In this document: piece after piece, positions 1-15,707 of the stretch
Layout: the number at the start of each line of letters is the position of its first letter
How positions within the stretch are numbered: position 1 is the first letter of the stretch
Program-made: the position numbers and the translations under genes
The notes under the pieces: model-generated
What the model saw: the letters and a program-made list of their open reading frames with translations, nothing else
Databases searched by the model: none
Told to the model about the DNA's origin: nothing
Source: a virus
Virus record (IMG/VR): IMGVR_UViG_3300008266_001103
Span: 1-23,517 of that record
Length of the DNA: 23,517 bases
Reading direction: 5' to 3' (one strand)

Positions 1-3000
1 GGCTCCCCTACGCAGCCAACGAGGCATATCCTGCATGGCAGCACGCAACCCGTCCTTGATGCGCGTAGTAGGCGCAGGCAGGTTGTTCGGGATGTTGCCG
101 ACTTGGCGGATTACGGACCTGCCAGCCTCGCGCTGCTCTCGTGCCGGGGTGGGGGCAAGAGAGAACGAAGCCAGATCAGAGTCCAACGAAGTGGTTGGAG
201 TTCCCTTAAGTTTAGGCACATATACGCCTTCGGAGATCTCCTGCATAACAAACCGCTGTACGGGCAACCCATACTTTTGGAACTCTTGAGAAAGTTCTTT
301 CCAAGTAGGTGCAGTTTCAGGGGCGGTGCTTGACCGCTCTACAAGCAAATCAATCGTCTTATTAGTATTTTTTAGTTCTTTAAGACTCTCAATTATATCA
401 GCATTACGCCGCTCTTTTACACGATCAAATTTGCCGTCTGTAACAGCATCTGGCAGCGACTCTTTGATCCTATCAAGTACTTCTATACCGTCTTTGCCGT
501 AAGCAAAAAGGTATTTATTTATAGCAGATTCATCTACTCCATAACTTGCAAGTTTCTTTTCAAGGGTTTCTTTTTGAGCAAGCCGCTTGTTTACGGTGTC
601 TTCAAGTTGCGACACCGTTTTTTGTGTTTCAGCAGTAGTAGTATCTGTAAGGATAGCGATAGGCTTTGCCTTTTTGCGGGTCAGTCCGTCATTTTGATAC
701 TTCTTGCTAATCGGGTCTACATCTTCTTTGCGGAAGACGAGGATCACCGCATCATCATCAAACGCCTGTCCGCTCTCATCAAGGCTTACATTTGTGCCGG
801 GCAAGAGTCCATTATCTACTATGTCTTGGATGTCTTCCTTGTTCCTAACGTTGTGGTATACGTACTTACCCGGCGCAAGATAGTCTTCGACAGTTTTTGT
901 AGAAACTGAGGCCGGACCTTCAAATTTTTCGTTAGTCCAAGCCCCAATTGCGAATGAGGTAGACAGAGGCCCCATAGAATCGAGGAACTCTTTGACGGAT
1001 TTGGCCGGTACAAACTTGTTGCCGGTAAGCAGTCCAACGAGTTGCCGCAACTTCTTAGCAAGTTCCGAGAAGAACTTGTCTACGACGCTAAGAGGCTTTT
1101 CGCTGGTGGTGACCCACTTGGAGGTGTTATCGGCAAACCATTCACCAAAACTTTTCCAATACCCTTCAAGGTTGGCAAGTTGTTTATCCCCGATGATAGC
1201 GGTTTGAACTTCGGCAGTTCTCCTGTTCCGAAGCGCTTCAATCATCTCGCGTCCGTCTTTACCTTTGACTTTCTCCAGCCAAGCGCGGAACTCGGCTTCT
1301 ATAGCCTTTTTGGTTTCAGGAGGGGCATTGTTGTACGCAACCCGCTCGATGATGTGGCCAAGTTCGTGGGAAATGATCTCCAAAGCAAGTTCTTCAGGGA
1401 ACGTAGAATCTATAGAGATGTAGAAGTCTTTGAGTTTGGGTCCAAAAGGACGGGTACTTCCCATCTCATTAGGATCAATACCAGCAGAAAGAGCCGACCG
1501 CCAATTCCCATAGAGATTATACTTTGCTTCGTTTCCACGAAGATCCTTGGAATCAAACAAAAAGACGTTGATCTCTTGCATTCCCATGTCTTTCATGAGA
1601 TCTGCCAAGAACTCTACGTACTTCTTTTTGACCGAGTCCGAACCTACGACATTGGAGGTTGCATCAGTAAACGGACCATCAGGCTTTCTTTTCGCGTTAT
1701 CAGCATCTTCTTTTTCAATGCGTTCACGAGCAGCCAGCAGGCGTTTCTTTTCCTCTTCGGTAAAGGCATCACCAGTAAAGTTTTTGATGTCTACCTTGGT
1801 ACGGCCTTTAGTTTTGTGGATTCCCACATAGACTGGTTGCCCATTCAGAACAGAAACCCCTTGCAACAAGGCTACATGAGCATCTGCATACACTATCTTC
1901 CCATTTGTATCTTTTTCAAACGTTGTTGCCCATTCAGGGCGCAAAAGTTTGGCTACCTCCGCGTCAAAAGCAGCAAAGGCGGCATCCTCAAACCTAGTTG
2001 AGTCCGGTCCAAAAGTATTTTCTTTTAGAGTCTCACGGATGTTGTCACTTAAAGTGTCTATTGTGTCTTGAAGACTTCCATGCTCGTTAGGAGAGTCGAA
2101 CGCATTCTGAGCAGAGCGCCTAGCAAAACTTTCAATCTCTTTTTGCTGCTCATTGCGCGCCTTTTCCTGCCGATCAAGTTCAGCAACCTCGGCATCAAGT
2201 TCTTCTTGAGTCTTTTCCTTCTTCGGCGCAGCCTCTTCCTTCGGCGCAGCCTCCTTCTTCGGCGCAGCCTCTTCCTTCGGCGCAGCCTCCTTCTTCGGCG
2301 CAGCCTCCTTAGGCGCAGCCTCTTTCTTCGGCGCAGCCTCCTTAGCCTCCTTTTTCGGCGGAGCCGGGCGCTTTACAGCCTCTTGCAGGAAAGCAGCAGC
2401 CTTCTGGTTTTCCTTCTGGTTGCGGCTTGTAAGCCCATTGACGACAGCCTCATACTCTTCGACAGAGATCCTGCCAGACTCAGCAAGGGCCTTAGCACCC
2501 TTCATAAGTTGTTCGACCAACTTGATCCGCTTCTTCCGCTTCTCATCCTTGCGGGTATCGGCCTTTTCCTCCTTTGCACCTTCTTCTTGCTGCTTAAGCC
2601 ACTTGTCTGCAGCATCGCCCTCCACATACTCGTCAAAGCGTGAGGTAGGCGCTTCCTTCTTGGTAGGCGCAGTCGAAGCAGTCTTTTTGCTTTCCCCGGT
2701 CAATTGCCCGATAGCGTCTTTGTCACCAGCAATGACGCGCTGGATCAACCCAAAGTTTGGCGTAGCGCGCTTAAGTTGGGACATTACCGCCTGATACACC
2801 TTAAAGTTGATGACATCGTCACCATAGGCATCAGCGGCTTGGGTGCTGAGTCGTGAGATCAGTGCAGTATCGCTTGCTCCCGCTCCTGCAGCAGGTCCTT
2901 GAGGAGTTTTGACAGCAGGAACCACTCCACCGGGCTTAGTTCCTTGAGTTCCGGGGACTCCGGGGGCCTGCTTTCGTACAGACACTCCAACGCCTGCTCT

Positions 3001-5040
3001 ACTGCGCTTAGGCTTAGATTCTGGACGAACTCGTACATCGCCTTCTCCTGCAGAAGTGAGTTTCCACTCCTTTTCTTTCGAGTCAAACTGGATCCTGCCT
3101 TGGCTCTTGAGCGTATTCAACGCACCAAGGATCTCCACAGGGCGCAACTGGGTTGCAAACTGAAGATTGTCCTTGGTCTTCTTGTCTTCCGAGATACGCA
3201 TCGCTCGCAGGACACGATCCGTAGGGGGCAGTTGCTCCATAGGGATGCCCGGCAAGTCCATCCCATATTGTTCCTTGGGAACCTCCTGCACATCTTCAAC
3301 CTGCGGAGTTTCCTGCTGGATCGGTACAGTTGACCCCGGAGGGACAGGTGCAAACTCCGTTTCTCCAAACAAATTTTCGGTAGGCTGACCTACTCGAGTT
3401 TCAAGTGGGAGTTCGGCTTTGCGCTCTTCCGGTACCACATCGGCAGCAAGGTATCGCGGAACAAACTGATTGGGCTTGAGATCCCCCTTGGCATCAACCT
3501 TCAGTCCAAGTTCTTTGGCCAACGCCCGATAGGGCTTGGAGCGCGGCTTAAAACCAACCGCTCCAAACACGTCCGCAGCAGGTACGTACATCGACGGAGT
3601 AGGTTCTTGGGTTTCGCCAAACAGAGGAAGTTCGACCTGAGCCTCACCACCCGTCAACGGCAGTTCTTTCTGCCACGGTTCAAAATCGACATCCTTAGCG
3701 GATTCTTGCCGCGCAAGTTCTTCCTCGTACGCTTTGATGCGCGCCGGGATGTCTGTCAAATACTGATCCTGTGCCTGTGCTTCTGCAGCCTCTTTCTCTT
3801 TCTGCTTTTTTGCTTCCATTGCAGCCACACGGGCTTCTCGCCCCTGCGCGGCTTTTTCTCGCAATGCTGCTGCTACATCAGCCGGAACAGTCTGCCCCGG
3901 TACGATCATTCCACGACGATCTACCTGTAAGTTCAGTTGCTTTACGAGAGTCGGATACGGTATTCCTAACCCACCAAGAACTTCACCGACCAGTTTTTCT
4001 GCAGGTACAACATCCGGCGCTTGAGTAGTGGCTTCTCCTTGCACTTGTTCTTGAGCAGCCTGTTCTTCTGCTTCTTCTGCAGCACGCTTCCGAGCCGTAC
4101 GGACTTCGGCGGCTCCACTGACACCGCCCATGAGCGGGCCAAGGATGGCTGCGCCAATCGCAGCCTGTTTGAACTCCCCCCGTGCTTCTTCATCGGTAAG
4201 AGATAGCCCAGCCTGCCACCGCTCCAACGCGGTCTGCGCAACTTCTTGCGGGACTTCAAACAACACGCCCTTACCCGCACCTTTGGCGATACCACCAGCA
4301 AAGGTCAACGTACCGCTACGAGCGGCATCGGTAAGGACTTCAGCAGCCTCGTCGCTACCTCCGACAAGATTGCGTACCAACGGGAACGCTTCAAACAACG
4401 GACGAAGAACACGGAACCCGACTACATCAAGCGCGGTTGAACCCGCAGCGGCAGCGGTGGCTTTGCCAAGACTGAACTCTTCAGGAGTACGCCCTTCAGC
4501 AAGGGCACGCTCTTGCTCTTCAGCCTGACGCCGGATGTTTTCGATCTCATACTGGGAGCCAATAGTTGTGGCACCTGCTGCCATACCTGCAAATGGAGTA
4601 GCAAGAGACCCTGCTGTAGCAGCGACTGCGGGAGCAACCAAGAAGCCAAGCGATCCACCAAGCAACTGCCTGAACGCCGCCCAGTTCTCGCCTTCACCAA
4701 ATCCCACGCTACGGAACTTGGACTCACCCGCAGCAAGCAGCGCCTTGCGGTTCTCTTCGGTCGGATTGGCTGCAAACACCGCAGCCTCATCAGCAAGACC
4801 AAGGGTCTTAGCAGAAGCAAACAAAGAGTCCCAAAACCCACCAAGCGGCTTTTCTTCCGGCTGCTCTACCGGTTGACCAGCACCATACAACTGCTGGTAG
4901 TAGTCATTTTGGGAAGCAGGTTGCGCTCTACCATACTGCGTATCGTAGATATACCGGATAGCATCCTGAGAAGAAGCCCCTTCAGGAGTGTTGACTTTAA
5001 ACGTCTTTCCATCGGGACCTTTAACGCTATATACCGGCAT
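1..5040 (-). CDS. Giant polyvalent virion protein with zinc metallopeptidase motif (C-terminus beyond window)
   Basis: The minus frame beginning with ATG at 5040 stays open for 1680 codons to the window edge. It starts one base inside the previous stop (TGATG) behind a strong GGAGGAG site. Residues 1-45 form a short domain (MPVYSVKGPDGKTFKVN...) often seen at the start of large phage internal proteins. Residues about 128-155 are a glycine/alanine-rich hydrophobic stretch. A 47-residue module occurs twice (about 345-391 and 486-532). Lysine/glutamate-rich AAPKKE/AAPKEE repeats fill about 900-942. HELGH at 1225-1229 with E1300 in SFGEWFAD matches a zincin zinc site. Around 1390-1450 lies a region with YVYHNV and GLLPGT that may be a second enzymatic domain. 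Large proteins of this type are thought to be packaged and ejected with DNA, like T7 gp16. The role here is inferred from position and architecture; the openness and the HExxH motif are seen directly. Confidence 0.88.
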   Translation of the reverse strand, partial: MPVYSVKGPDGKTFKVNTPEGASSQDAIRYIYDTQYGRAQPASQNDYYQQLYGAGQPVEQPEEKPLGGFWDSLFASAKTLGLADEAAVFAANPTEENRKALLAAGESKFRSVGFGEGENWAAFRQLLGGSLGFLVAPAVAATAGSLATPFAGMAAGATTIGSQYEIENIRRQAEEQERALAEGRTPEEFSLGKATAAAAGSTALDVVGFRVLRPLFEAFPLVRNLVGGSDEAAEVLTDAARSGTLTFAGGIAKGAGKGVLFEVPQEVAQTALERWQAGLSLTDEEARGEFKQAAIGAAILGPLMGGVSGAAEVRTARKRAAEEAEEQAAQEQVQGEATTQAPDVVPAEKLVGEVLGGLGIPYPTLVKQLNLQVDRRGMIVPGQTVPADVAAALREKAAQGREARVAAMEAKKQKEKEAAEAQAQDQYLTDIPARIKAYEEELARQESAKDVDFEPWQKELPLTGGEAQVELPLFGETQEPTPSMYVPAADVFGAVGFKPRSKPYRALAKELGLKVDAKGDLKPNQFVPRYLAADVVPEERKAELPLETRVGQPTENLFGETEFAPVPPGSTVPIQQETPQVEDVQEVPKEQYGMDLPGIPMEQLPPTDRVLRAMRISEDKKTKDNLQFATQLRPVEILGALNTLKSQGRIQFDSKEKEWKLTSAGEGDVRVRPESKPKRSRAGVGVSVRKQAPGVPGTQGTKPGGVVPAVKTPQGPAAGAGASDTALISRLSTQAADAYGDDVINFKVYQAVMSQLKRATPNFGLIQRVIAGDKDAIGQLTGESKKTASTAPTKKEAPTSRFDEYVEGDAADKWLKQQEEGAKEEKADTRKDEKRKKRIKLVEQLMKGAKALAESGRISVEEYEAVVNGLTSRNQKENQKAAAFLQEAVKRPAPPKKEAKEAAPKKEAAPKEAAPKKEAAPKEEAAPKKEAAPKEEAAPKKEKTQEELDAEVAELDRQEKARNEQQKEIESFARRSAQNAFDSPNEHGSLQDTIDTLSDNIRETLKENTFGPDSTRFEDAAFAAFDAEVAKLLRPEWATTFEKDTNGKIVYADAHVALLQGVSVLNGQPVYVGIHKTKGRTKVDIKNFTGDAFTEEEKKRLLAARERIEKEDADNAKRKPDGPFTDATSNVVGSDSVKKKYVEFLADLMKDMGMQEINVFLFDSKDLRGNEAKYNLYGNWRSALSAGIDPNEMGSTRPFGPKLKDFYISIDSTFPEELALEIISHELGHIIERVAYNNAPPETKKAIEAEFRAWLEKVKGKDGREMIEALRNRRTAEVQTAIIGDKQLANLEGYWKSFGEWFADNTSKWVTTSEKPLSVVDKFFSELAKKLRQLVGLLTGNKFVPAKSVKEFLDSMGPLSTSFAIGAWTNEKFEGPASVSTKTVEDYLAPGKYVYHNVRNKEDIQDIVDNGLLPGTNVSLDESGQAFDDDAVILVFRKEDVDPISKKYQNDGLTRKKAKPIAILTDTTTAETQKTVSQLEDTVNKRLAQKETLEKKLASYGVDESAINKYLFAYGKDGIEVLDRIKESLPDAVTDGKFDRVKERRNADIIESLKELKNTNKTIDLLVERSSTAPETAPTWKELSQEFQKYGLPVQRFVMQEISEGVYVPKLKGTPTTSLDSDLASFSLAPTPAREQREAGRSVIRQVGNIPNNLPAPTTRIKDGLRAAMQDMPRWLRRGA
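2219..2345 (-). repeat. Tandem 15-18 bp repeats coding for AAPKKE/AAPKEE
   Basis: The plus-strand core GGCGCAGCCTC occurs seven times at roughly 18-base spacing, with one shortened unit. Read in the minus-strand gene it encodes AAPKKE and AAPKEE hexamers. This is a coding low-complexity linker inside the giant virion protein, probably an extended charged helix or disordered spacer between its N-terminal half and the metallopeptidase half. Confidence 0.9.
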
Positions 5041-6923
5041 CACTCCTCCACAAGTGTTGCGCTAAAACCAGAATACGGGTTTTCCATACCACCACTTGCA
5101 CCAGACAAAGTACCACCAGAAACCATTTCATCTCGCTGCATTCGGATCATTCCCATTTTTGCACGAGCCTGTGCGCGTTCAGTCGAAGATCTAGCCACAT
5201 CGTTTGCAATATCTTGCTGATCTTTGTAATCCATATCCAACCCGGCTACTTTCATCCTAAGAAGCCCAAGAGTACCAGAACTTGACCCAGAACCGGCCCC
5301 CCGTGCTGATGATGCTGCGGCGGCAATTTTTCTTCCCTCAAGGTCAAGGTCCTGCCCACGCACCATAACTGCGAGCCTACGCGCATCCATATCCATCATA
5401 TCAGCGTGTTTCTTACGCTCAAACAACTCAGTTCTGTACTGCTGATCAATTTGCATAGCAGTCTTAAAGTCGCCTTCTTTACGGGCTTCCTCTGCCTGAC
5501 GCAATTTGATCATAGCCTCTCGCATGGCACGACGGTTGGCATCCATCTCCTTGTTGAGGCCGCGAAGAGCCTGCGTACCCGAAATGGCACCTTCCGACAA
5601 GGCACCCAAGAACGTAGCGCCCGGACGCGAAGCGGCAGCGGCCATCTTGAACCCGGCTTCAGCGAACGCAAGCATCTTGTCCTGACCGAACTGCTTGGTA
5701 AGCCTCTCGTTCTCTTCAGACAGGAACGACCTCATCTGCTCATCGGCCTGCCCGATACCCTGTGCTTCACGCCACTTAGCCAATGCCTCTGCCGCAGGCC
5801 CCGCTCTCTTGATCAATGCTTCAGGAGACAGGTCTTCGGGTGCAGCAGGAGCCACAGCCTGACCGGGACGCGCAGCAGGAGCCACAGCCTGACCGGAGCG
5901 CGCAGCAGGACCCGCAGGACGACGCGGAGGCGTAGCAGGCAGGCCAGCCGGAGCAGCCGGAGCAGCCTGATTATTTGAAGAAGGAGTGGTTGGAGTTTCT
6001 TGTCTTTGGAAAAGCCTATACCGTGCAACAAGTTCTTGTACTTCAGGAGACTCCCATGACCCAGTTTGCTTTACAAGATTTTTAATTTGTTCTGCAAGTT
6101 TCTTTTGAGTAGGAGAAAGGTTGAGTTGAACCCCACTAGAAGGATCTTGGAGTTGTGCAATACGTTCTCCTGTACGCTCTACGGCTTTTTCAAGCGGAGT
6201 AGTGTACAAAAAACTTGTAGGGAGTGCAGATTCCAGAGTGCCTGTAAACGTAGCCAACCCTGTTTTAAATTTGCTTTGTGGGTTTACATCCATGCCCAAC
6301 TGCGCAAGTCGAGAAGTTTCCTGAACACTTTCAGGATCGCTTCCAGCGGCTTCAAATGCTCCAAGACCTGCACCAGCAACAGCGCCAAGTTTGGCGGCTT
6401 TTGTTGCGTACTTACCGACAACACCATCCCCAGAACGAGCCATTAATGCTCGTCCCCACTTAGAAAATGTGGGCATATTCTTGTCAGCCCATTCAAGAAG
6501 TCTAGCGCGCTGCTGAGGATTGGCTTCCTGAAACTGCCTATTCCAATTATCCCAGTCAAATAGTTCATCGGTAGCATTTAGGCCGCCATCCGAGAACGCC
6601 ACGATGCCGCCGCCTGCGAACTGAGCCTGCTCCATGACCGGAGCCGGGAGGCTGGCAACACCCTGCTGCATCATCGCCTGCTGCTGTTCCGCCATGTTCA
6701 ACTGGTCGCGGATAGTCGGCGGGGTCTGCGGAGCCTGTGCGGGCTGCTGCTTCAGTCGCTGGAACTGATTCATCATGGCGTAGAGGTCCGCCAGAGGAGC
6801 CACGCCCTGCGTAGCCATGCTCTTGACGTACTGGATGGCCTGATCAGGCGGCATACCTTTCTGCATGGCCTGCTGAAGCGAAGCCATCATGGCGCGACCC
6901 GTACCGCTGACTGGACCGATCAT
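5040..6923 (-). CDS. Internal virion protein with FAGGG motif and coiled-coil C-terminal half
   Basis: This 627-residue protein starts at ATG 6923, overlapping the previous stop by four bases (ATGA). The first 100 residues are methionine/glutamine-rich helices. FAGGGIVAFSDGG at 102-114 is a motif I recognise from internal proteins of metagenomic aquatic phages. Residues about 120-330 are less biased and noticeably more AT-rich in DNA. About 330-380 is a proline/alanine linker containing a ten-residue repeat (GQAVAPAARP). The rest is charged, alanine-rich helix, likely coiled coil, ending in a glycine/serine stretch and a short methionine-rich tail. It sits between a glutamine-rich protein and the giant terminal protein, in the place where podoviruses encode ejection (inner core) proteins. 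No catalytic motif is visible, so a capsid-internal or ejection role is inferred. Confidence 0.88.
   Translation of the reverse strand: MIGPVSGTGRAMMASLQQAMQKGMPPDQAIQYVKSMATQGVAPLADLYAMMNQFQRLKQQPAQAPQTPPTIRDQLNMAEQQQAMMQQGVASLPAPVMEQAQFAGGGIVAFSDGGLNATDELFDWDNWNRQFQEANPQQRARLLEWADKNMPTFSKWGRALMARSGDGVVGKYATKAAKLGAVAGAGLGAFEAAGSDPESVQETSRLAQLGMDVNPQSKFKTGLATFTGTLESALPTSFLYTTPLEKAVERTGERIAQLQDPSSGVQLNLSPTQKKLAEQIKNLVKQTGSWESPEVQELVARYRLFQRQETPTTPSSNNQAAPAAPAGLPATPPRRPAGPAARSGQAVAPAARPGQAVAPAAPEDLSPEALIKRAGPAAEALAKWREAQGIGQADEQMRSFLSEENERLTKQFGQDKMLAFAEAGFKMAAAASRPGATFLGALSEGAISGTQALRGLNKEMDANRRAMREAMIKLRQAEEARKEGDFKTAMQIDQQYRTELFERKKHADMMDMDARRLAVMVRGQDLDLEGRKIAAAASSARGAGSGSSSGTLGLLRMKVAGLDMDYKDQQDIANDVARSSTERAQARAKMGMIRMQRDEMVSGGTLSGASGGMENPYSGFSATLVEE
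5043..5049 (-). promoter_or_regulatory. Strong ribosome binding site for the giant protein
   Basis: The minus strand reads GGAGGAG just before the TGATG stop/start junction at 5042-5038. It lies in the last codons (VEE) of the preceding gene and supports both the ATG at 5040 and independent initiation on top of coupling. Confidence 0.7.
5842..5910 (-). repeat. 30 bp coding tandem repeat (GQAVAPAARP)
   Basis: A 25-base block starting GCAGCAGGAGCCACAG occurs at 5842-5866 and again at 5872-5896, followed by a partial third copy from 5902. The period is 30 bases, ten residues, so length changes keep the frame. It encodes the alanine/proline linker of the 627-residue virion protein. Confidence 0.85.
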
Positions 6924-8476
6924 CGACCACCCCCGCTACCAAGGCTACCGAAGAGACTGCCAAGCCCCGCCCCCGCCCCTGCGATCTGAGCGAACAGGTT
7001 AGGCGACTGCTGATAGAGTGTACCAGTCTGGCCCGTCGCCGGAATACCCCGCAGGAGGCCCATGCCGAACTCAGCCTGCTTGTACGGGAACTGCTGCTGG
7101 TTGATGAAGTCCTGATACCTCTGGTTAAGCATCTCCTGCTCCAGAGCCTGACCCTGAGCGCCCGCACCCAACTGAGCCTGCGTGATGCCCATGCCCTGCT
7201 GGTACCGTTGCATCCCAAGCCCGCCAAGCGCACCCGCCGCAGCCAACTGCTGCTGAAGGCCCTGAAGACCGAGGTTGGCCCCGAACTGCCGGGACTGCTC
7301 CATCATCTGCTGCGCGGCTTGGTTCTGACCCAGACCCATCTGAAGAGTCTGCAACCCGCTCTGCTGGTTGGCCAACTGAGACTGCAAGTTCTGGCCCGAC
7401 CCCAACTGCTGGACGCCAAGGAGTGCAGCGAGATTCTGCTGTCCCGTCGTGAGGCCAGCCTGCTGATTCGCTAGAGCCGCTTGTAGCCCCATCTGACCCG
7501 TCTGGAGACCCGCAGCCTGATTCAACTGCTGGGCGGTCATGCCCATCTGAGCCGCCTGCTGGGCCGCTGCCTGATTCGCCAATTGCGACTGGAGTCCGGT
7601 CTGCGTCCCCAACTGCTGCGTAGAGAGCAACGACGCAAGATTCTGCTGTCCCGTCGTAAGACCTGCCTGCTGATTTGCCATACCCGCCTGCATGGCCGCT
7701 GCGCGGTCAGCGCCGAACTGCTGCTGGGCCTGCTGAAACGCGCCCTGACGACCCGTGGCCTCGATGCCCTGCAACTGCCCCTGAAGGTTGCGGTTTGCTT
7801 CCGACTGAAGCAGCGCTTCACGAGTACCGCCTCGTCCGCCAACCCGAGCCGCCGCAGCGCCGATCCCCGGCAACTGCCTACGATAGTCTTGGATGGCACC
7901 CCGCTTCTGCTGCTCGACCACGTTCTCCATGTACGGAGACATATACTCCGCAGCCTGCGCACCACCGAACCGCTCGGCACCGACACGCTCTGCCGGACCC
8001 ATCTGGAAGGTACTGACCCCCGGCGCGTTGACACGCTCAAACCCGGACGGCCCTGTGACACGCTCAAAGCCCCCCGGACCGCCGACACGCTCTGCCGGAC
8101 CCATCTGGAACTGCTGCAACTGCGGAGCCTGCGTACGAAGGAAGTCCAGTCCCATCGACTGATACTGCATTGGCTGGTAGGACATCCCCATCTGTCCGGA
8201 CATCCGACCCGCAAGGCTTGCCAAACCTGACGCTTCTCCCATTTCGGGAGCGACCTTCATTCCGGCAATGCCTTCCATTCCCTGCTGCTGAAGCGGGCTA
8301 AATCCTGCTACGCGCTGCTTGCCATACGGCTGGTACCCCTGCCCAACAAGGCCGGGGCGAAAAGCCCCCGTAGTAGGGTCACGACCGCCAAAGACGCTAC
8401 CTAGCAACTGACTTGCGTAAGGCTGCGCCCACGACGGGATAGTTGAAGTGATCTGTTCGGTTTGGGTCGGTGTCAT
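6920..8476 (-). CDS. Glutamine/alanine-rich internal virion (ejection) protein
   Basis: This 518-residue protein starts at ATG 8476, with AAGGAG about 12 bases upstream. It begins with a tryptophan/proline-containing head (PSWAQPYASQLLGS) and a GYQPYGKQRVAGFSPLQQQG segment. Near residues 120-170 it repeats the decamer FQMGPAERVG. Residues about 180-440 are a long glutamine/alanine/glycine helix region in which a 35-residue unit recurs (about 265-300 and 337-373, core QQAGLTTGQQNLA and LQSQLANQ, 72 residues apart). The C-terminus is hydrophobic and glycine-rich (FAQIAGAGAGLGSLFGSLGSGGGR), which could insert in a membrane. Glutamine-rich helical proteins of this kind in podoviruses are typically ejected before DNA, comparable to T7 gp14/gp15. 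No enzymatic motif is seen. Function is inferred from composition and position. Confidence 0.88.
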   Translation of the reverse strand: MTPTQTEQITSTIPSWAQPYASQLLGSVFGGRDPTTGAFRPGLVGQGYQPYGKQRVAGFSPLQQQGMEGIAGMKVAPEMGEASGLASLAGRMSGQMGMSYQPMQYQSMGLDFLRTQAPQLQQFQMGPAERVGGPGGFERVTGPSGFERVNAPGVSTFQMGPAERVGAERFGGAQAAEYMSPYMENVVEQQKRGAIQDYRRQLPGIGAAAARVGGRGGTREALLQSEANRNLQGQLQGIEATGRQGAFQQAQQQFGADRAAAMQAGMANQQAGLTTGQQNLASLLSTQQLGTQTGLQSQLANQAAAQQAAQMGMTAQQLNQAAGLQTGQMGLQAALANQQAGLTTGQQNLAALLGVQQLGSGQNLQSQLANQQSGLQTLQMGLGQNQAAQQMMEQSRQFGANLGLQGLQQQLAAAGALGGLGMQRYQQGMGITQAQLGAGAQGQALEQEMLNQRYQDFINQQQFPYKQAEFGMGLLRGIPATGQTGTLYQQSPNLFAQIAGAGAGLGSLFGSLGSGGGR

Positions 8477-8491: not shown

Positions 8492-9092
8492 TTAAGCAGG
8501 CAGTAAGCGGTCGGTCTTCACAGCGGGGGCTTGGTTTGTCTTGCCCGTCCGCGCCTTCCGCACTCGTGCCATCATGTCGTAGAGTTTCTTTGCTCCAGCC
8601 TTGGTGGAGCCGTTACCAAGATGCGATACCACATCAGCAGGGATTACGAACTCGCCATCAGCCAACGCAGCACGTTGTACTCCCTTGCCACGGATCACGG
8701 CAGGGATGTCATCGGACATACCGTCACCCGGCCCATCAAGCAGTTTACCACCCGCCTGATACTCACCGGGCATACCGCCACCTGCGAAGCCGAAGTTGTA
8801 GTCCTCGCCCACGGCACCGCCGTAGTTGAACGCTTTGCCCGTCTTCGGAGTCCGCTTACGCGGACGCGGCTCTTCCTCTTCCTCATCGATGATGCGAGGC
8901 ATATACGGAGTCGGTTCCGGCTCGCTGAACGGAGTTCTCGGAGGAGGCAAAGACTCTGTAGGCCAAATCTCCTCCCGCTCAGGCGGGGGAGTAATGCTAT
9001 CCGGAGTCGGAACGACCTTCGGCTGCGGCGGCGGAGCCGGGGGTGCAGGTTCCTCATCGATGATGCGGGGCATATACGGAGAGTTCTGAACT
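8492..9092 (-). CDS. C-terminal segment (third frame) of a frame-broken ~1140-residue virion protein
   Basis: This frame opens after TGA at 9094-9092 and ends at TAA 8494-8492. Its first ATG is at 9073, but that ATG lies inside a conserved-looking PYMPRIIDEE segment that recurs 57 residues later, and no good ribosome binding site precedes it. It is therefore more likely the continuation of the protein encoded upstream than a separate gene. It contains a proline/glutamate linker, GGAVGEDY, FAGGGMPGEY, then KLLDGPGDGMSDDIPAVI and a region (DGEFVIPADVVSHLGNGS, KAGAKKLYDMM) that is a familiar C-terminal signature of large internal proteins in aquatic metagenomic phages. The preceding frame continues to 8695 only as arginine-rich nonsense. 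Some pipelines would call 8492-9073 as a stand-alone 193-residue gene. Confidence 0.75.
8880..8910. repeat. 31 bp direct repeat, copy 1
   Basis: The 31-base block beginning TCCTCATCGATGATGCG recurs at 9051-9081 with one mismatch. On the minus strand both copies encode PYMPRIIDEE. The copies are 171 bases apart, a multiple of three. Confidence 0.92.
9051..9081. repeat. 31 bp direct repeat, copy 2
   Basis: This is the partner of 8880-8910, differing at one base. Its upstream edge (on the coding strand) coincides with the place where the reading frame changes between the second and third segments of the large virion protein. Confidence 0.92.
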
Positions 9093-10508
9093 CATCACGT
9101 CCGATACCCCGGAAAGCGTCAGGTCGGCCTTGGAAGCCCGCAGGCATCTGACCCTGCATCTGCATATCAGACGGCGGCGTACCTGCGTAAGTAGGCTTCT
9201 CGCTCACGATCTTGAACTTCTTGTCGCCCTTGACCTGCGCGTTGCTGATCGGAGCGCCGCGCATAAAGTTGTAGACCATGTCGGTCATCATGAAGTCTTG
9301 GATTTTACGGGCATCCTCGTTCTTCGGACCCGGACCCATCTCACTCAGCCACGGCTGTACAACCTTTTCGTAGATGGTGGAAGCATCGGCTCCCTTGTCT
9401 ACCTTACCTTCCTTGACCGCGTTGTTGATGACCTGCGTCATGTCGTACACGAAGTCTTCGTTGCCCGTTCGACCGTACTTGGCCTGACCGGGGAACTCGT
9501 TCTTGTTCGTACGGAAGAAGTTGATGAAGCCCTGCGCAAGTTCTTCAGGCGGCGCTTTACCAAACCCGCGCCCCTGATCGACCGCCTTCCAGTAGTTTTC
9601 CAGAGCCTTGTCACCGTACTCCTTGGTGTTGACCATCGAAGAGCCAAGTGCAGCAACAGCAGCAGCAGCAAGACCGATAGGACCCAACGCCGCAAGTCCG
9701 CTATACCCCATCAGGCTTGCCGCACCAGTTGCTGCGCCAAACCCACCCAAGGCAGACTGAACTTCATTACCCTTGCGGATACCTTCATAGGCTTGATGTA
9801 GGCCAAGCGCGGTCTGAAGGCCGGGGATGATCGCAGCCTTGCCAGTAAGAGGCGCACCTTTCTCAAGGCCGAAAATGCCCGTACTTGTACCGCTAGCCCC
9901 GCCCGCACCAGCCGCACCGCCCGCACCCGCACCAGCCGCACCGCCCGCACCAGCCCTAGCAGAGTTAGCAACACTAGAGCCTATAGCATCCCCAACGGTT
10001 TCAATTCCTTCAATCAAAACTTGACCAGTTCTACCAGCAGTCGGTAAAAGCATAGCGCCGCCACCCATAACTCCCGCACCGATTGCAGCGGGCATGGATG
10101 TGCTAGAAGTTCTGTAGTCCGGACGCGATTCAGGCGCGTTAGGGTCGTTGTTCAATCCTTCTTCATCGATTGTAACTTTTCCAGTCCGACCAGAGGGCGG
10201 CACAAGACTAGCCACGCCACTAGCAGCGCTGATAGCAGCGGGAGCAACATTCGTAGCAGGGACTTTTGTTACTTCTACAGGTCTGTTCCCAATCTCAGCA
10301 CGTTCGTCAGTAGCAAGTTTGTCTTTAATGACGTCAACGCCCTTACCGATTCCTCTGTTGATGAGGTCATTTGCGATGATGCCGCCTACAACACTACCCG
10401 CGCCGCCACCGCCGCCACCGCCGCCACCGCCACCGCCACCCGTAGACGGACCGGGAACATACGGCTCATTCGTGCCACCCAGACCCTGACCGCCCGGATA
10501 GGCAAAGT
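9080..10508 (-). CDS. Middle segment (second frame) of a frame-broken ~1140-residue virion protein
   Basis: The frame opens after TGA 10512-10510, has no ATG before about 10215, and only offers an internal GTG at 10215 without a convincing ribosome binding site. It begins sensibly at FAYPGGQGLGGTNEPYVPGP, then thirteen glycines, then a mixed region, alanine/glycine repeats near 9895-9960, and a hydrophobic segment (AALGPIGLAAAAVAALGSSM). After that comes a better-ordered domain with NYWKAVDQGRGFG, GFINFFRTNKNEFPGQ and WLSEMGPGPKNEDARKIQDF. Around 9092-9080 meaningful coding passes to the next frame; the open frame runs on to 8695 as low-quality sequence. Together with its neighbours it most simply forms one ejection-type protein. 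It could instead be a genuinely split set of genes. Confidence 0.72.
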
Positions 10509-11912
10509 CTCAGGGTTCTTTGCGCGGCGATTTAGGTCTTCGATGTACGCACGAGTCGCTGCAACGTTGGGATCAGCCACAGGATTGGTGAAGTACGGGC
10601 TGAACGGAGTCTTAGGAGGCGGGGGTAGCAATACGTTACCGCCCGGATCGCCGTGAGGCGGTTGAATGCTTCGCCGCAAAGTTTCTATGTCCCAAGACGG
10701 CATAGTTAAGAAATTTCCGCCCGGATCGCGGTTAGGGTCTACAAAACCGCCATCAGCAAAACGTTCTTCTCCTGTGTACGGATCAACGGGGACGCTATAT
10801 CCCGAAAACATCTCTCGGCTCTGCGGTGCGCTGAGAGAGGAAGAACTCGGCACCGTGCCAGAAAGCGGGTAAGTGTTGTTGTTGGCAGGGTACTGCTTGG
10901 TCTGGTACGGAAGAACGCGGGAAGAATCGACATCGCCGCCATTTGCATAGCCCGGAGCCAACGCGAACGGATCAAACGGCACCAAGCCCTTCGGGGTACG
11001 CTTGTAGTACTTACCCGGCAACTGATACGGCTGATCACGCCCCGTACCGTAGAGCGGGTTGAACTCACCGGGGATGTAGACGTAGTCCTCGCCCAGCGCC
11101 CCACCAGTCGGGACTTTAGGCGGCTCAGGGGTCATGGCGTTGAGCGCACCCATGAAAGTGAGGTTCTTGGACATATTCTGCATAAACGGAGACTTGAACC
11201 CGCCACCCAAGGCTTCACCAAACGCCGTGCGAGACTCAGGCGAAGTGAACAAACTCTTGATGCCGCCCATGACGGAGGGCTGTTGAAGAGTAGGAAGTTT
11301 GTTGGTAGCAACTTCTGCGAGAGGGTTGACACTCAATCCCGGAAGAGCCTTACCAGCAAGAGGGTCAGTAAGTTCTTTGATTTTAGACGTTGCCAACTGC
11401 GGGGCGCTTGTCGTGCCTCCGACTTGTTCAGCAATTTTAGGAAGTTCCTGAAGTTTTTTCAGTTCCTCAGCCCCGATTGCCGGGGCTTGAGATGCAGCAG
11501 CATTCGCAGCAGCCGATGCCGCTCTCAACGACTGGGTGATGTTCGCACCGCTGTATGCGCCAAGGCCCGCTTCAAGACCCTTCTTGAGGTCGCCCTCGAT
11601 GAGCGCGGTAGCGCCGCCGACCAGCAGTCCCGTACCCAACGTGGCGTTGCCGAACCCGATGGTCTTGGCGAGCGATCCAAGACCGGGGATGCTAGGCACC
11701 ACCGCGCCGATGATGGTCGGCAGGATCTTCTTGAGGATGTTGGCCTCGTAGAGTCCGGTCTGCGGATTGATGGTCAGACTGCCGCCGTGGGCCAGCGCAA
11801 GAGCCTGAAGACCCTTGACCTCTTCGGGGGCCATGTGGACAAGCATGGAGTCACCACGCCGACCACGCGAAGCGAGGGTAGACGCTATTCCAGATTCAGG
11901 GGCACGATACAT
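10386..11912 (-). CDS. N-terminal segment (first frame) of a frame-broken ~1140-residue virion protein
   Basis: The start is ATG 11912, one base after the TAG of the C1q-like gene, with AGGAG about eight bases upstream. Residues 21-27 (DSMLVHM) and 41-50 (AHGGSLTINP) form an N-terminal signature I know from internal virion proteins of aquatic metagenomic phages. Residues about 55-115 are a long hydrophobic, glycine-rich segment (LPTIIGAVVPSIPGLGSL) suggestive of membrane insertion. GGALGEDY near 270 resembles GGAVGEDY in the third segment, and YANGGDV and RFADGGFV are ADGG-type motifs. Sensible coding stops near 10505 (AKNPET); the remaining residues to the stop at 10386 are an arginine/valine artefact of reading a poly-glycine tract out of frame. 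Likely a membrane-active ejection protein, by inference. Confidence 0.8.
   Translation of the reverse strand: MYRAPESGIASTLASRGRRGDSMLVHMAPEEVKGLQALALAHGGSLTINPQTGLYEANILKKILPTIIGAVVPSIPGLGSLAKTIGFGNATLGTGLLVGGATALIEGDLKKGLEAGLGAYSGANITQSLRAASAAANAAASQAPAIGAEELKKLQELPKIAEQVGGTTSAPQLATSKIKELTDPLAGKALPGLSVNPLAEVATNKLPTLQQPSVMGGIKSLFTSPESRTAFGEALGGGFKSPFMQNMSKNLTFMGALNAMTPEPPKVPTGGALGEDYVYIPGEFNPLYGTGRDQPYQLPGKYYKRTPKGLVPFDPFALAPGYANGGDVDSSRVLPYQTKQYPANNNTYPLSGTVPSSSSLSAPQSREMFSGYSVPVDPYTGEERFADGGFVDPNRDPGGNFLTMPSWDIETLRRSIQPPHGDPGGNVLLPPPPKTPFSPYFTNPVADPNVAATRAYIEDLNRRAKNPETLPIRAVRVWVARMSRMFPVRLRVAVAVAAVAAVAARVVL
10402..10440 (-). repeat. GGT/GGC tract coding for thirteen glycines
   Basis: Thirteen consecutive GGT or GGC codons on the minus strand form a poly-glycine hinge in the second frame of the large virion protein. 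Read in the first frame the same bases give a valine/alanine string ending at 10386, which marks that tail as out of frame. Confidence 0.9.
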
Positions 11913-12513: not shown

Positions 12514-14804
12514 CAGCGTCTCCCATCCGGACGGACATCGATACGCATTGAACCCATCTGCCACGCTACGCCAAGCGCCGTGGACTCGATCCGGAATGCC
12601 ATCTGCCTACCCCGGATGCGGGTGTAGACCTGCCCGGTGTATTGCTGGATCGGTATGGTCGTCGTGCGGGTCACCGTTGGCATATCGGCAGCGTCATAGT
12701 TGGACCCCGAGTTCTGCCGGGGCTTGACCGTCAAGACGACCTGCGGGTTGTTCGCCGTCGAACCGATGAAGTTCACGTCAGGCACGATACGCCAGACATA
12801 CCCGAAAGTGTGTCCGTCTTGGATGTCGAAGTCCGACGATTCAGCATACGCCTCGATAGCGCGTGGCGTAGCGGTAGACAGATCGTCGTTGCCAAACTCA
12901 TGCACCACGACCTGATTCGGGATGACAAAAGGTGCAGGTGTGTATGCAGTATGAGACGCTGCCGTGGTTCCGTTGACCCCTCGGATACAGCCTGTCAGAG
13001 TGTTACTGTTCTTACCGCTATAGGTGATCTGCTCGGAATCGATGGTGATGGTCCCTGCATTCGGATATGTCGAAGCGTCCGTCAGCGAGATCGTGGCGAT
13101 GCTGGAGTTGATGTCGGACGACAGATACGACGTCTGGATGCTGAACACCGCAATCGGGTAGTTCCGCTGGGTGTGGTCCGCCCACGCAGTACGCACAAGC
13201 GTGCCGTAGTACCACGTCTTTTCCAGATAATTGTAGACCACATAGCGGTCGTTTACGGTGCTTGTAGCAGACGGGTAGCACCACCAGATTTCGTTGAACC
13301 CCTCATTGGCACCCGCAACGACCTGACCCATCTGGTCGAAATTGATATCGCTGAAGATGTACTGACGCAGGGTGCAGGGCAGCGTCTCGACGCGGCCTGA
13401 ATACACGAAGAACTTGTCCCGCCCCATCCAGTAGACGACGTTGTTCACAGTCATCACGGCGTTCTGGGACGAGATGGTCACATCATGGTCAAGCGGATTG
13501 AACGACCAGACGAACGGCGGACCGACATACTGCATGGAGAAAAGCGCAGTATCGGTCCAGATGAGGATCTCCTGACGGGTGTTGGTAGCCGTCACGATGT
13601 AGGAACCGTGCGAGAGTTTGGTCTCACCGGACTGGTTCGTGGTCTCCGGCACCCACTCGTAGGCGTTGCCCTGATCTGCCCAACGGACGAGAAGCGGGTC
13701 GAATGCCGTGTTGAAGTTCGTAGGGTCGTAGGGCGTAGAGCCACAAGCGATGATGAAATCGTTGGTCGGAGAGTCGATGATGACGTTGACCTTGTTCGGG
13801 ATGTGCTGCCCAGCAAAACTGAAATCGACCGGAGTGTTCGACAAGGATGAAGTGGTGGCGATGGAGATAGGCACCGAAGCGCTGCCGTCCCAAGCCGTGG
13901 TGACATACGCTCCTGCGGGGATCCCGGTACCCGTCACGATTGCGCCCGTGTTGATGCCCGAAGTGTCCGATACCGTGAGGGTTGTCACGCCCGAGCCAGC
14001 GGTCGCCGTGGTGCCGAACTTGATGGCTGCATTGGCCTTCGCTTCAAGCGTAACAGCCTTGTTCCAGTTACCGACGTCCAGCGTCCAGAAATAGATCTCG
14101 CCGCCCCGCTCCGCGAAGATGAGGTCGTCGTTGTAGTTGAACATCGACCAGAGCCGCATATTCACGCCGACACCGGAGACAGAACCCCAGCCGCCAGCAC
14201 CCCACGGCGGACCGCCCCAACCCACACCAGAACTGTAAAGCGCATTGTCTGCGTTGATGTCGAAGGAGGCGATCACAACTGAGCCACCGCCTGTGGTCGT
14301 TGCGTTGGCAGGGGTGGAAGTGTAGATGGTGAAACTGTTCGCGTCAGGTACGGTCTGGATCTCGTACGCACCGTTCAAGGTCAGTCCAGCCACCGCTGTC
14401 GCGCCAGAGAAAGTGACATAGGTACCGCGAGTAGCCCCGTGGTTCGACGCGGTGACCGTGACGATCTTGCTGCCATTGGTCGTGGCAAAGGGGGCAGCGC
14501 CCAGAGCCAGAGTGCTACCGAGCGGCGTGATGTCGTAGTAGATCCCGCCCATCTCGACGTAGAACTTCTGGTTCGTCCCCATGCCAAGCAGGTTCTGGCC
14601 GAGCGTGGTCACCCAGTTCCAGACGTTGCGGCACACACCTTTGAAGGTGCTGCCCTCGGCATTCAGCCCCTGCCAGCCGCCGATCTTCTCAGCAAAACCT
14701 GAGCGCCACCGTACCTTGTCGCAGGCGTAGTACCCGCCTTCGTTGGCATACGATGTCGATTCCCGGTTTACACCGGGACGCAACTCAAGTTTTTGAAGGG
14801 GCAT
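12513..14804 (-). CDS. Large modular tail/hub structural protein (stabilisation-protein-like)
   Basis: This 763-residue protein starts at ATG 14804 with GGAGAG upstream, overlapping the end of the endolysin gene by 20 bases. The N-terminus (LRPGVNRES, EGGYYACDKVRWRSGFAEKI) and the repeated blocks with tryptophan, aspartate and glycine resemble a family of aquatic phage tail proteins sometimes called phage stabilisation proteins; a beta-propeller-like core is plausible. Three embedded modules look like mobile tail domains: about 105-170 (GSKIVTVTASNHGATRGTYV), about 255-330 (GSGVTTLTVSDTSGINTGAI), and about 575-630 (STYPNAGTITIDSEQITYSG then LTGCIRGVNGTTAASHTA). The C-terminal region has a GHTFGYVWRIVPDVNF and RGRQMAFRIES pattern. 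It follows the lysis genes but belongs to virion assembly. Exact location in the tail is unknown. Confidence 0.87.
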   Translation of the reverse strand: MPLQKLELRPGVNRESTSYANEGGYYACDKVRWRSGFAEKIGGWQGLNAEGSTFKGVCRNVWNWVTTLGQNLLGMGTNQKFYVEMGGIYYDITPLGSTLALGAAPFATTNGSKIVTVTASNHGATRGTYVTFSGATAVAGLTLNGAYEIQTVPDANSFTIYTSTPANATTTGGGSVVIASFDINADNALYSSGVGWGGPPWGAGGWGSVSGVGVNMRLWSMFNYNDDLIFAERGGEIYFWTLDVGNWNKAVTLEAKANAAIKFGTTATAGSGVTTLTVSDTSGINTGAIVTGTGIPAGAYVTTAWDGSASVPISIATTSSLSNTPVDFSFAGQHIPNKVNVIIDSPTNDFIIACGSTPYDPTNFNTAFDPLLVRWADQGNAYEWVPETTNQSGETKLSHGSYIVTATNTRQEILIWTDTALFSMQYVGPPFVWSFNPLDHDVTISSQNAVMTVNNVVYWMGRDKFFVYSGRVETLPCTLRQYIFSDINFDQMGQVVAGANEGFNEIWWCYPSATSTVNDRYVVYNYLEKTWYYGTLVRTAWADHTQRNYPIAVFSIQTSYLSSDINSSIATISLTDASTYPNAGTITIDSEQITYSGKNSNTLTGCIRGVNGTTAASHTAYTPAPFVIPNQVVVHEFGNDDLSTATPRAIEAYAESSDFDIQDGHTFGYVWRIVPDVNFIGSTANNPQVVLTVKPRQNSGSNYDAADMPTVTRTTTIPIQQYTGQVYTRIRGRQMAFRIESTALGVAWQMGSMRIDVRPDGRR

Positions 14805-15168
14805 CCGTCACTCTCCGCCACTCAGGCTTGCCAATACCGCGAGAGAAGTGCGGAGTATCCACCAGACGGACTCCGTTGCCGCCCCATGAGTTCAAGGGAT
14901 GGAGCGATTCCCAGTACGCCCCGAGGGGGGCGAGAACGCCCTTATCGTAGCACAACTTCCCGTCCTTGAAGAAGTTGAAGTCGATGGCGCGACGGGAGAG
15001 ATGCAGGCTGTTCATGGTCCGGCTGCGACCCGCCTTGATGTGGATCTGCTGCTGCTCCGGGGTCCGGTAAAGTTCTCCCCCTGTGACGAGGAAGCCCATC
15101 TCCCGCGCCTTCTGGATGAGAAGGGCGACATCTTGCAGAAAGTCTGCCTGTTCTTCGACGTTGCTCAC
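14785..15168 (-). CDS. Endolysin, M15-type zinc D,D-/L,D-peptidase
   Basis: The 127-residue protein starts with GTG at 15168, overlapping the holin stop as GTGA, with AAGGAG nine bases upstream. It has the layout of VanY/M15_4 peptidases that cut cell-wall peptide cross-links: RTPEQQQIHIKAGRSRTMNS before the first zinc ligand, SLHLSRRAIDFNFF giving H56 and D63, GAYWESL, and a C-terminal DTPHF giving the probable catalytic acid/base D104 and third ligand H107. Many relatives read GGxFxDxxHFE here; this one has GGNGVRLVDTPHF, a small variation with the ligands kept. There is no signal peptide, so export depends on the adjacent holin. Activity is inferred from the intact motif set. Confidence 0.9.
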   Translation of the reverse strand: MSNVEEQADFLQDVALLIQKAREMGFLVTGGELYRTPEQQQIHIKAGRSRTMNSLHLSRRAIDFNFFKDGKLCYDKGVLAPLGAYWESLHPLNSWGGNGVRLVDTPHFSRGIGKPEWRRVTDAPSKT

Positions 15169-15707
15169 TTCATCATCTCCTTGATCTGGTCGGACTTGTC
15201 CCGGCTACCCTGCGACGAGCCGAAGTAGTACGAGATGATCTGGGTAGCGATGGCCGACAGGACGCCCAAGATGTAGATGAGAATGTCCTTGCGGGTCGGT
15301 TCCACAGGCTGATCATCGAACATCACGATGCCGAACAGACCGAAGGTCATCAGGAGAAGGGACAGCGCGAGAACGGGGGTCACGATCTTGTTGAGCAAGG
15401 GGGCTTTCTCAGAAGTGGAGATCTGTACCTCCCGCTCCCGCGCTGAATTCACATCCTTCATGTACAACTCAAGTTCGGCCAAGCCCAACTTGTTCTCTTC
15501 GATCTTGAGTCGGAGCAGTTCCTCTTCATGCTCCATCTCTGCGGACTTCAACCGGATGATCTCGTCAGCCGTCATGTCCGGCTTAAGTTCGACACCCAGT
15601 TTCTTCTCTACATACCCCTTGCCCTTGGCAAGGACGGCGTTGGCCACCAGCCCCAGCCCATTGGCAAGGAGCGGCTTCAGAAGTTCAAGGACTGCTGCTT
15701 GGATCAT
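15165..15707 (-). CDS. Holin, GTA-type three-segment family
   Basis: The 180-residue protein starts at ATG 15707, overlapping the upstream 57-residue gene as ATGA, and ends overlapping the endolysin start as GTGA. It has a hydrophobic/amphipathic N-terminus (about 1-26), a long charged helical section (about 45-95) and two clear membrane segments at about 108-130 and 141-163, followed by a charged tail (DKSDQIKEMMK). The section ISTSEKAPLLNKIVTPVLAL is typical of the holin family known from gene transfer agents (GTA_holin_3TM). It would form inner-membrane lesions that release the endolysin. The immediate endolysin neighbour supports this. Confidence 0.87.
   Translation of the reverse strand: MIQAAVLELLKPLLANGLGLVANAVLAKGKGYVEKKLGVELKPDMTADEIIRLKSAEMEHEEELLRLKIEENKLGLAELELYMKDVNSAREREVQISTSEKAPLLNKIVTPVLALSLLLMTFGLFGIVMFDDQPVEPTRKDILIYILGVLSAIATQIISYYFGSSQGSRDKSDQIKEMMK

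What the first reader, a model, noticed from the sequence alone, without database searches (positions are those of the whole stretch)
1..5040. Giant open frame with a buried zinc metallopeptidase signature
A single minus frame stays open for at least 1680 codons and exits the window. HELGH at residues 1225-1229 (bases 1368-1354) followed 71 residues later by SFGEWFAD with E1300 is the usual HExxH...E arrangement of zincins. Large phage polyvalent proteins can carry peptidase domains, but the substrate is unknown; it might process the other low-complexity ejection proteins or act inside the host after injection.
Basis: partly seen in the sequence, partly recalled or inferred. Interest (0 to 1): 0.62.

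Follow-up and report, generated by a model that had tools for sequence, protein, structure and literature searches.

The report
Swappable protease in phage ejection protein
This phage gene makes a giant protein, probably injected into bacteria with the viral DNA, that carries a real zinc-protease domain of a group missing from the family libraries searched; close relatives have swapped that domain for other proteases or lack it, which suggests an optional injected tool rather than a core structural part.

Summary
A minus-strand ORF runs from an ATG at base 5040 off the window edge (at least 1,680 codons). HELGH (1368-1354) is followed 71 residues later by the Glu of GEWFAD. Composition predicts 0.002 HExxH motifs; the protein has only six His.

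The domain (residues ~1040-1365) is a zincin. HExGH and the Glu are kept in all 50 non-redundant relatives, median dN/dS is about 0.085, and a 47-sequence AlphaFold2 model reaches pLDDT 91. Its nearest folds are zincins and polyvalent-protein models. The clade has no Pfam, NCBIfam or confident PHROG model, but zincins in phage polyvalent proteins are a known kind (Iyer 2017).

The main new result is modularity. The N-terminal module (roughly 30-65% identical) occurs with this peptidase, with other HExxH contexts, or with none. L100 and L097 share the N-module and a 58%-identical C-terminal body, but only L097 carries the roughly 600-residue peptidase+ART cassette. The contig ends just inside that body.

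I favour an injected effector acting in the host (~0.5) over obligatory self-processing (~0.3). Catalysis, packaging and substrate are unproven, and the metal-ligand distances could not be measured.

The parts
1..5040 (-). Giant polyvalent / probable ejection protein, N-terminal 1,680 aa; C-terminus beyond the window (expected total about 2,540 aa by comparison with L097)
   Evidence: open frame without stop; C-terminal residues align with the start of the body of L097
4021..5040 (-). N-terminal module (residues 1-340), Ala/Gly-rich hydrophobic stretches; residues 262-309 (EVPQEVAQTALERWQAGLSLTDEEA...) shared most widely
   Evidence: 33 further phage loci found with it; segment BLAST
2216..2340 (-). 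KEAAPK-type tandem-repeat linker upstream of the peptidase
   Evidence: Tandem Repeats Finder, 36-base period, 3.6 copies
946..1923 (-). Zincin metallopeptidase domain with its small N-terminal subdomain (residues 1040-1365)
   Evidence: 47-sequence alignment, AlphaFold2 pLDDT 90.9, pTM 0.87, fold searches
1354..1368 (-). HELGH: predicted Zn ligands H1225 and H1229, general base E1226
   Evidence: 50 of 50 representatives
1129..1146 (-). GEWFAD: predicted third Zn ligand E1300, invariant D1304 (ExxxD, as in gluzincins)
   Evidence: 50 of 50 representatives; conservation partly selected by the scan patterns
166..903 (-). Unidentified insert (residues 1380-1625) at the place where L097 has an ART-PolyVal domain; resemblance to an ADP-ribosyltransferase (YVYHNV...GLLPG) is by eye only
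   Evidence: no relatives found; single-sequence model unusable, pLDDT 43
34..165 (-). FSLA junction and start of the C-terminal body (residues 1626-1669)
   Evidence: 36% identical to L097 1230-1273, E 1e-4, immediately upstream of its LPD39 match
5040..8476 (-). Two genes directly upstream (627 and 518 aa, low complexity), candidate partner ejection proteins
   Evidence: kept upstream of the giant gene and on the same strand in relatives

Best explanation
The window encodes a giant, probably virion-packaged and ejected 'polyvalent' protein of a podovirus-like phage. An N-terminal module and a C-terminal LPD38/LPD39-type body form the constant frame. Between them sits a slot for enzymatic cassettes, here a zincin metallopeptidase (HELGH...E, predicted Zn ligands H1225, H1229, E1300) followed by an unidentified domain. 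The most likely mechanism is that the protein leaves the capsid with the DNA, the peptidase refolds in the host envelope or cytoplasm, and it acts there as an injected effector protease on host proteins. Well supported: zincin domain, conserved active site, purifying selection, cassette modularity. Inferred: packaging and ejection, from genomic position and relatives. Inferred and least certain: catalysis, and a host rather than a self substrate.
For: Invariant HExGH...E; dN/dS median 0.085 in the domain; confident model and zincin-type fold matches; LPD38 in 18 of 22 relatives and ART-PolyVal in 3; last gene of a co-directional virion cassette, at the position annotated 'DNA transfer protein' in syntenic Phage DSL-LC04. 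Cassette behaviour: the same N-module occurs with this peptidase, with other HExxH contexts, or with none, at least 5 state changes on its tree; L097 and L100 differ by a clean ~600-aa peptidase+ART block. 27 of 44 relatives have no extra cargo between peptidase and body, so the peptidase is often the only enzyme there.
Against: No catalysis, packaging or ejection was shown. Ligand distances were not measured. Swapping and loss would also fit optional self-processing. DSL-LC04's gene at this place is not detectably homologous. The window's own C-terminal body is almost entirely missing.
Confidence: 0.5

Rival explanations
1. Self-processing: the zincin cuts its own polypeptide, in the capsid or after ejection, to separate N-module, cargo and C-body.
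For: Proposed for polyvalent-protein zincins in general, with P1 DdrB shortened before packaging (PMC5512222). The peptidase sits between flexible linkers and next to a conserved xFS[VL]S junction in the window-near clade. In L097 the peptidase and ART form one block that L100 lacks as a whole.
Against: Peptidase-less proteins with the same N-module and a 58%-identical body exist, so the frame does not need it. FS-type motifs are not enriched as repeated sites. 27 of 44 peptidase proteins have no cargo behind it. N4 vRNAP with an HExxH domain is packaged unprocessed according to PMC5512222, and the N4 structure preprint saw no degradation of the recombinant protein.
Confidence: 0.3
2. Virion maturation protease that cleaves other structural or low-complexity ejection proteins during assembly.
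For: The gene lies in the virion cassette next to low-complexity proteins.
Against: The domain is absent or replaced in relatives that keep the neighbouring genes. No test of cleavage sites in the partners was made.
Confidence: 0.1
3. Structural zinc or pseudo-enzyme domain needed for packaging or folding, not for proteolysis.
For: In N4 the region that holds its HExxH domain is required for encapsidation while no cleavage is known (PMC5512222).
Against: The general base E1226 is invariant along with the ligands, and the domain is dispensable in relatives.
Confidence: 0.08
4. Chance HExxH motif in a long low-complexity protein.
For: None beyond the protein's length.
Against: Expected count 0.002, full conservation, confident fold.
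Confidence: 0.01

Closest known systems
Zincin-like metallopeptidases (MPTase) of polyvalent proteins, Iyer et al. 2017 (PMC5512222)
   Same: HExxH helix followed by a helix with the Glu ligand; placed inside giant phage proteins with LPD38 or LPD39 and ART domains; encoded among virion genes.
   Different: No significant match to any Pfam, NCBIfam or (for the window) PHROG model; sequence signature HExGH...Y[W]xSFxEWxADxxSRW; could not be compared with their 12 clade alignments.
UUJ74515.1, 2,441-aa protein of Microcystis phage Mae-Yong1326-1 (annotated 'peptidoglycan transglycosylase')
   Same: Same peptidase family: HELGH...SFQEWAAE, HMM E 9e-18, hhalign probability 97.4%.
   Different: About 24% identical over the domain; Glu instead of the invariant Asp of ExxxD; carries a second HExxH (HEWAH) further on.
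Escherichia phage N4 virion RNA polymerase gp50, C1 domain (PMC12633501)
   Same: HExxH domain inside a giant ejected protein; weak alignment at the same motif.
   Different: hhalign probability only 13%, and not significant with the HMM; attached to an RNA polymerase; reported without processing.
PLxRFG / DarB-like antirestriction giant proteins (Klebsiella phage LASTA and relatives)
   Same: The C-terminal body of the peptidase protein L089 is about 50% identical to a segment of them.
   Different: They lack this peptidase, carry other cargo annotations (methylase, helicase, transglycosylase), and have the shared segment mid-protein rather than at the end.
Lethal-factor-type (M34), IrrE/M78, SprT and M48 zincins
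   Same: Fold class and HExxH + Glu architecture; weak structural and subthreshold profile matches.
   Different: No significant sequence membership in any of them.

Membership tests
Zincin metallopeptidase superfamily | HExxH motif, conserved | tested here: met
   50 of 50 representatives, 88 of 88 loci with an HExGH in the domain
Zincin metallopeptidase superfamily | Third ligand Glu on a later helix | tested here: met
   E1300 invariant, at the start of helix 259-273 of the model; partly selected by scan patterns
Zincin metallopeptidase superfamily | Fold similarity to solved zincins | tested here: met
   top PDB match is a zincin at E 0.017, probability 0.84, with low TM-score; weak IrrE-, SprT- and M34-like viral matches
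Zincin metallopeptidase superfamily | Ligands converge on one Zn site | not testable with these tools
   model coordinates not available
Zincin metallopeptidase superfamily | Zinc-dependent proteolysis | not testable with these tools
   needs an experiment
Phage polyvalent proteins (Iyer 2017) | Multiple domains of different activity in one giant protein with LPD-type domains | tested here: met
   met in homologues: LPD38 18 of 22, ART-PolyVal 3, LPD39 in L091, L097, L100; in the window itself the body is cut off and no Pfam domain is significant
Phage polyvalent proteins (Iyer 2017) | Encoded among virion genes | tested here: met
   synteny and conserved neighbours
Phage polyvalent proteins (Iyer 2017) | Packaged and delivered with the DNA | not testable with these tools
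   inferred from position only
One of the 12 MPTase clades of Iyer 2017 | Placement in their alignments or tree | not tested
   their supplementary alignments were not available here
N4 gp50 C1-type MPTase | Profile similarity | tested here: not met
   hhalign probability 13%; HMM not significant
Peptidase_M78 (IrrE), M48, SprT Pfam families | Profile match above the curated cut-off | tested here: not met
   best E 0.0078, 0.093 and 0.17 among members, all subthreshold

The most novel reading that the evidence does not exclude
Phage ejection proteins of this type contain a dedicated effector slot between a constant N-terminal module and a constant C-terminal body, in which different zincin proteases and ADP-ribosyltransferases are exchanged as injected anti-host tools. 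The window's HExGH...GEWxAD clade would be one of them, cutting a host (for example defence) protein in the first minutes of infection.
Probability: 0.4. Interest if true: 0.65.

Novelty: new member of a known kind. Interest (0 to 1): 0.42.

Why it matters
What the peptidase domains of phage polyvalent proteins do has been open since they were described: self-processing, or attack on the host. The natural plus/minus pairs found here (for example L097 and L100, with a matching N-module and a 58%-identical body but with or without the cassette) turn that into a direct comparison. The clade has at least 129 viral loci in IMG/VR, yet no Pfam or NCBIfam model covers it, and one isolate's member carries a name that does not describe this domain ('peptidoglycan transglycosylase').

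Tried and rejected
Chance motif: rejected. Repeated FS[LV]A-type linker as a multi-site cleavage signal: not enriched (z 0.2); only a single junction is conserved in the near clade. Direct family assignment of the window protein by Pfam, NCBIfam, PHROGs and PDB sequence: nothing significant. Insert 1380-1625: pattern scan, tblastn, PDB sequence search and single-sequence AF2 (pLDDT 43) gave nothing usable; 'ART-like' is by eye only. An ART-looking stretch in L115, which has no HExxH and would argue against cargo release, was not confirmed by Pfam and is not used. N4 C1 as a direct homologue: not significant. A genus-wide search around the Acinetobacter locus failed for lack of a genome handle and was not repeated. 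The PHROG 'minor head protein and DNA pilot' lead was not traced to a phage. FSR and SFS enrichment probably comes in part from conserved motifs and was not pursued.

Full report
Observation. The minus strand carries one open frame from 5040 (ATG, overlapping the stop of the previous gene as TGATG) to base 1, 1,680 codons without a stop. HELGH lies at bases 1368-1354 (residues 1225-1229) and the Glu of SFGEWFAD at 1143-1141 (residue 1300), 71 residues after H1229. With six His in 1,680 residues, 0.002 HExxH motifs are expected from composition. The window is a 23.5-kb virus record, a fragment.

What the domain is. No Pfam, NCBIfam, PHROG or PDB sequence match to the window protein is significant. 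Scans of IMG/VR with the domain and then with a profile found 13 and then at least 129 loci, plus two genome contigs labelled Legionella MAG and Acinetobacter sp.. In 50 representatives left after 85% redundancy removal, H1225, E1226, G1228, H1229, A1239, R1271, Y1294, E1300, W1301, A1303, D1304, S1307 and F1323 are invariant. The scan patterns included YWKSFGE and W[YF]AD[QN]VSR, so the conservation of GEWxAD is partly selected; HExGH was not in the patterns. Close pairs of the domain show dN/dS of 0.03-0.18, median 0.085. An AlphaFold2 model from 47 sequences has mean pLDDT 90.9 and pTM 0.87, with HExxH in helix 177-195 and the Glu at the start of helix 259-273 of the domain. Foldseek finds a lethal-factor-type zincin first in the PDB (E 0.017, probability 0.84, low TM-score) and IrrE/PprI weakly. 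In the viral library it finds 'Large polyvalent protein associated domain-containing' proteins (E 7e-13 and 2e-11), then weaker IrrE-, M34- and SprT-like proteins. Some members match PHROG 87 'metallo-protease' and PHROG 4529 'minor head protein and DNA pilot' weakly. The zincin assignment is secure at the level of motif and predicted fold; ligand distances could not be measured.

What the protein is. Full-length relatives are mostly 2,000-2,700 aa. LPD38 is found in 18 of 22, ART-PolyVal in three, and GNAT, LPD23, LPD39, SNF2 and methylase-type matches in single members. These are features of phage polyvalent proteins, in which zincins are the commonest domain and are proposed to self-process or to act in the host (PMC5512222). 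The gene is last in a co-directional virion cassette whose upstream genes are kept beside it in dozens of loci, always on the same strand. The window is syntenic with Phage DSL-LC04, where the gene at this position is annotated 'DNA transfer protein' (1,068 aa, no HExxH, not detectably homologous). Packaging and ejection are therefore inferred, not shown.

Modularity. A search with the N-terminal 340 residues found 33 more phage loci. Their giant proteins fall into three groups: with the same peptidase (L095-L098, HMM E 1e-65 to 1e-71); with HExxH in other contexts (HEAxH...EFVSxAxTN; HEILH; and the six-residue HESLGH) that the peptidase HMM does not match; or with no HExxH at all. That the second group are zincins too is inferred from the motifs only. 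Profile comparison does not relate the window's clade to the HEAxH group. On an N-module tree these labels need at least five changes, and the nearest N-module by identity (L100, 65%) has no HExxH. L100 and L097 share 47% identity over about 500 N-terminal residues and 58% over about 880 C-terminal residues; L097 residues ~630-1248, holding the peptidase (746-1026) and ART-PolyVal (1066-1230), are missing from L100. The window's last residues 1626-1669 align with the start of L097's body, so the contig stops just inside it and the expected full length is about 2,540 aa. No separate copy of this peptidase lies in the fetched flanks of the peptidase-less loci.

Mechanism. The peptidase is conserved where present but dispensable to the frame that carries it. 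That argues against an obligatory role in maturing the ejection machinery and favours an optional, exchangeable activity. Self-processing remains open: Iyer et al. favour it, P1 DdrB is shortened before packaging, and the window-near clade shares an xFS[VL]S junction between peptidase and body. Against it: no repeated site is enriched, 27 of 44 relatives have no extra cargo behind the peptidase, and N4 vRNAP with its own HExxH domain is reported unprocessed. I commit to an injected effector protease acting on host proteins (about 0.5), with self-processing at 0.3. Neither catalysis nor substrate is shown.

Known or new. The closest isolate sequence is the 2,441-aa UUJ74515.1 of Microcystis phage Mae-Yong1326-1 (HELGH...SFQEWAAE; HMM E 9e-18, hhalign 97.4%). 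The kind is known; this clade has no curated model in the libraries searched. Whether it coincides with one of Iyer's 12 clades could not be tested. I therefore class it as a new member of a known kind, with the plus/minus cassette pairs as the useful new result.

Noticed in passing
window 8492-11912 (minus strand), breaks near 10401-10440 and near 9090: A tape-measure-like gene appears in three pieces in different frames. In relatives L107 (1,110 aa) and L098 (1,270 aa) it is one ORF, and the DSL-LC04 tape-measure protein matches both outer pieces. The first break falls in a Gly-codon repeat, so sequencing or assembly error is likely; a real disruption is not excluded.
   Followed up: partly
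L010, protein residues 1797-1801; P0002 (Microcystis phage) after residue 1079: Some giant proteins carry a second HExxH (HELGH in L010, HEWAH in UUJ74515.1) outside the first peptidase domain, so several peptidases may sit in one chain.
   Followed up: no
L100:541-599 and L115:446-502 (protein residues); possibly window residues 605-660: FtsK_gamma-type winged-helix domains lie in the middle of several of these giant proteins (Pfam E 4e-19 and 1e-18), suggesting DNA binding. The window's own stretch looks similar by eye but has no significant match.
   Followed up: partly
L089 (Acinetobacter sp. CFCC 10889 contig): A cultured-strain genome carries a 2,580-aa relative whose body is about 50% identical to DarB-like/PLxRFG giant proteins of Klebsiella, Pseudomonas and Erwinia phages; probably a prophage, context not examined.
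   Followed up: partly
A3 members against PHROG 4529: 13 of 47 domains match PHROG 4529 'minor head protein and DNA pilot' (best E 1e-7, C-terminal third of the profile), hinting that a smaller DNA-pilot protein carries a related domain.
   Followed up: no
window 14785-15707 (minus strand): Lysis pair: an M15-like endolysin candidate (Pfam M15_4 just below cut-off) and a holin-like protein 44% identical to the DSL-LC04 3TM holin, next to the stabilization protein.
   Followed up: partly
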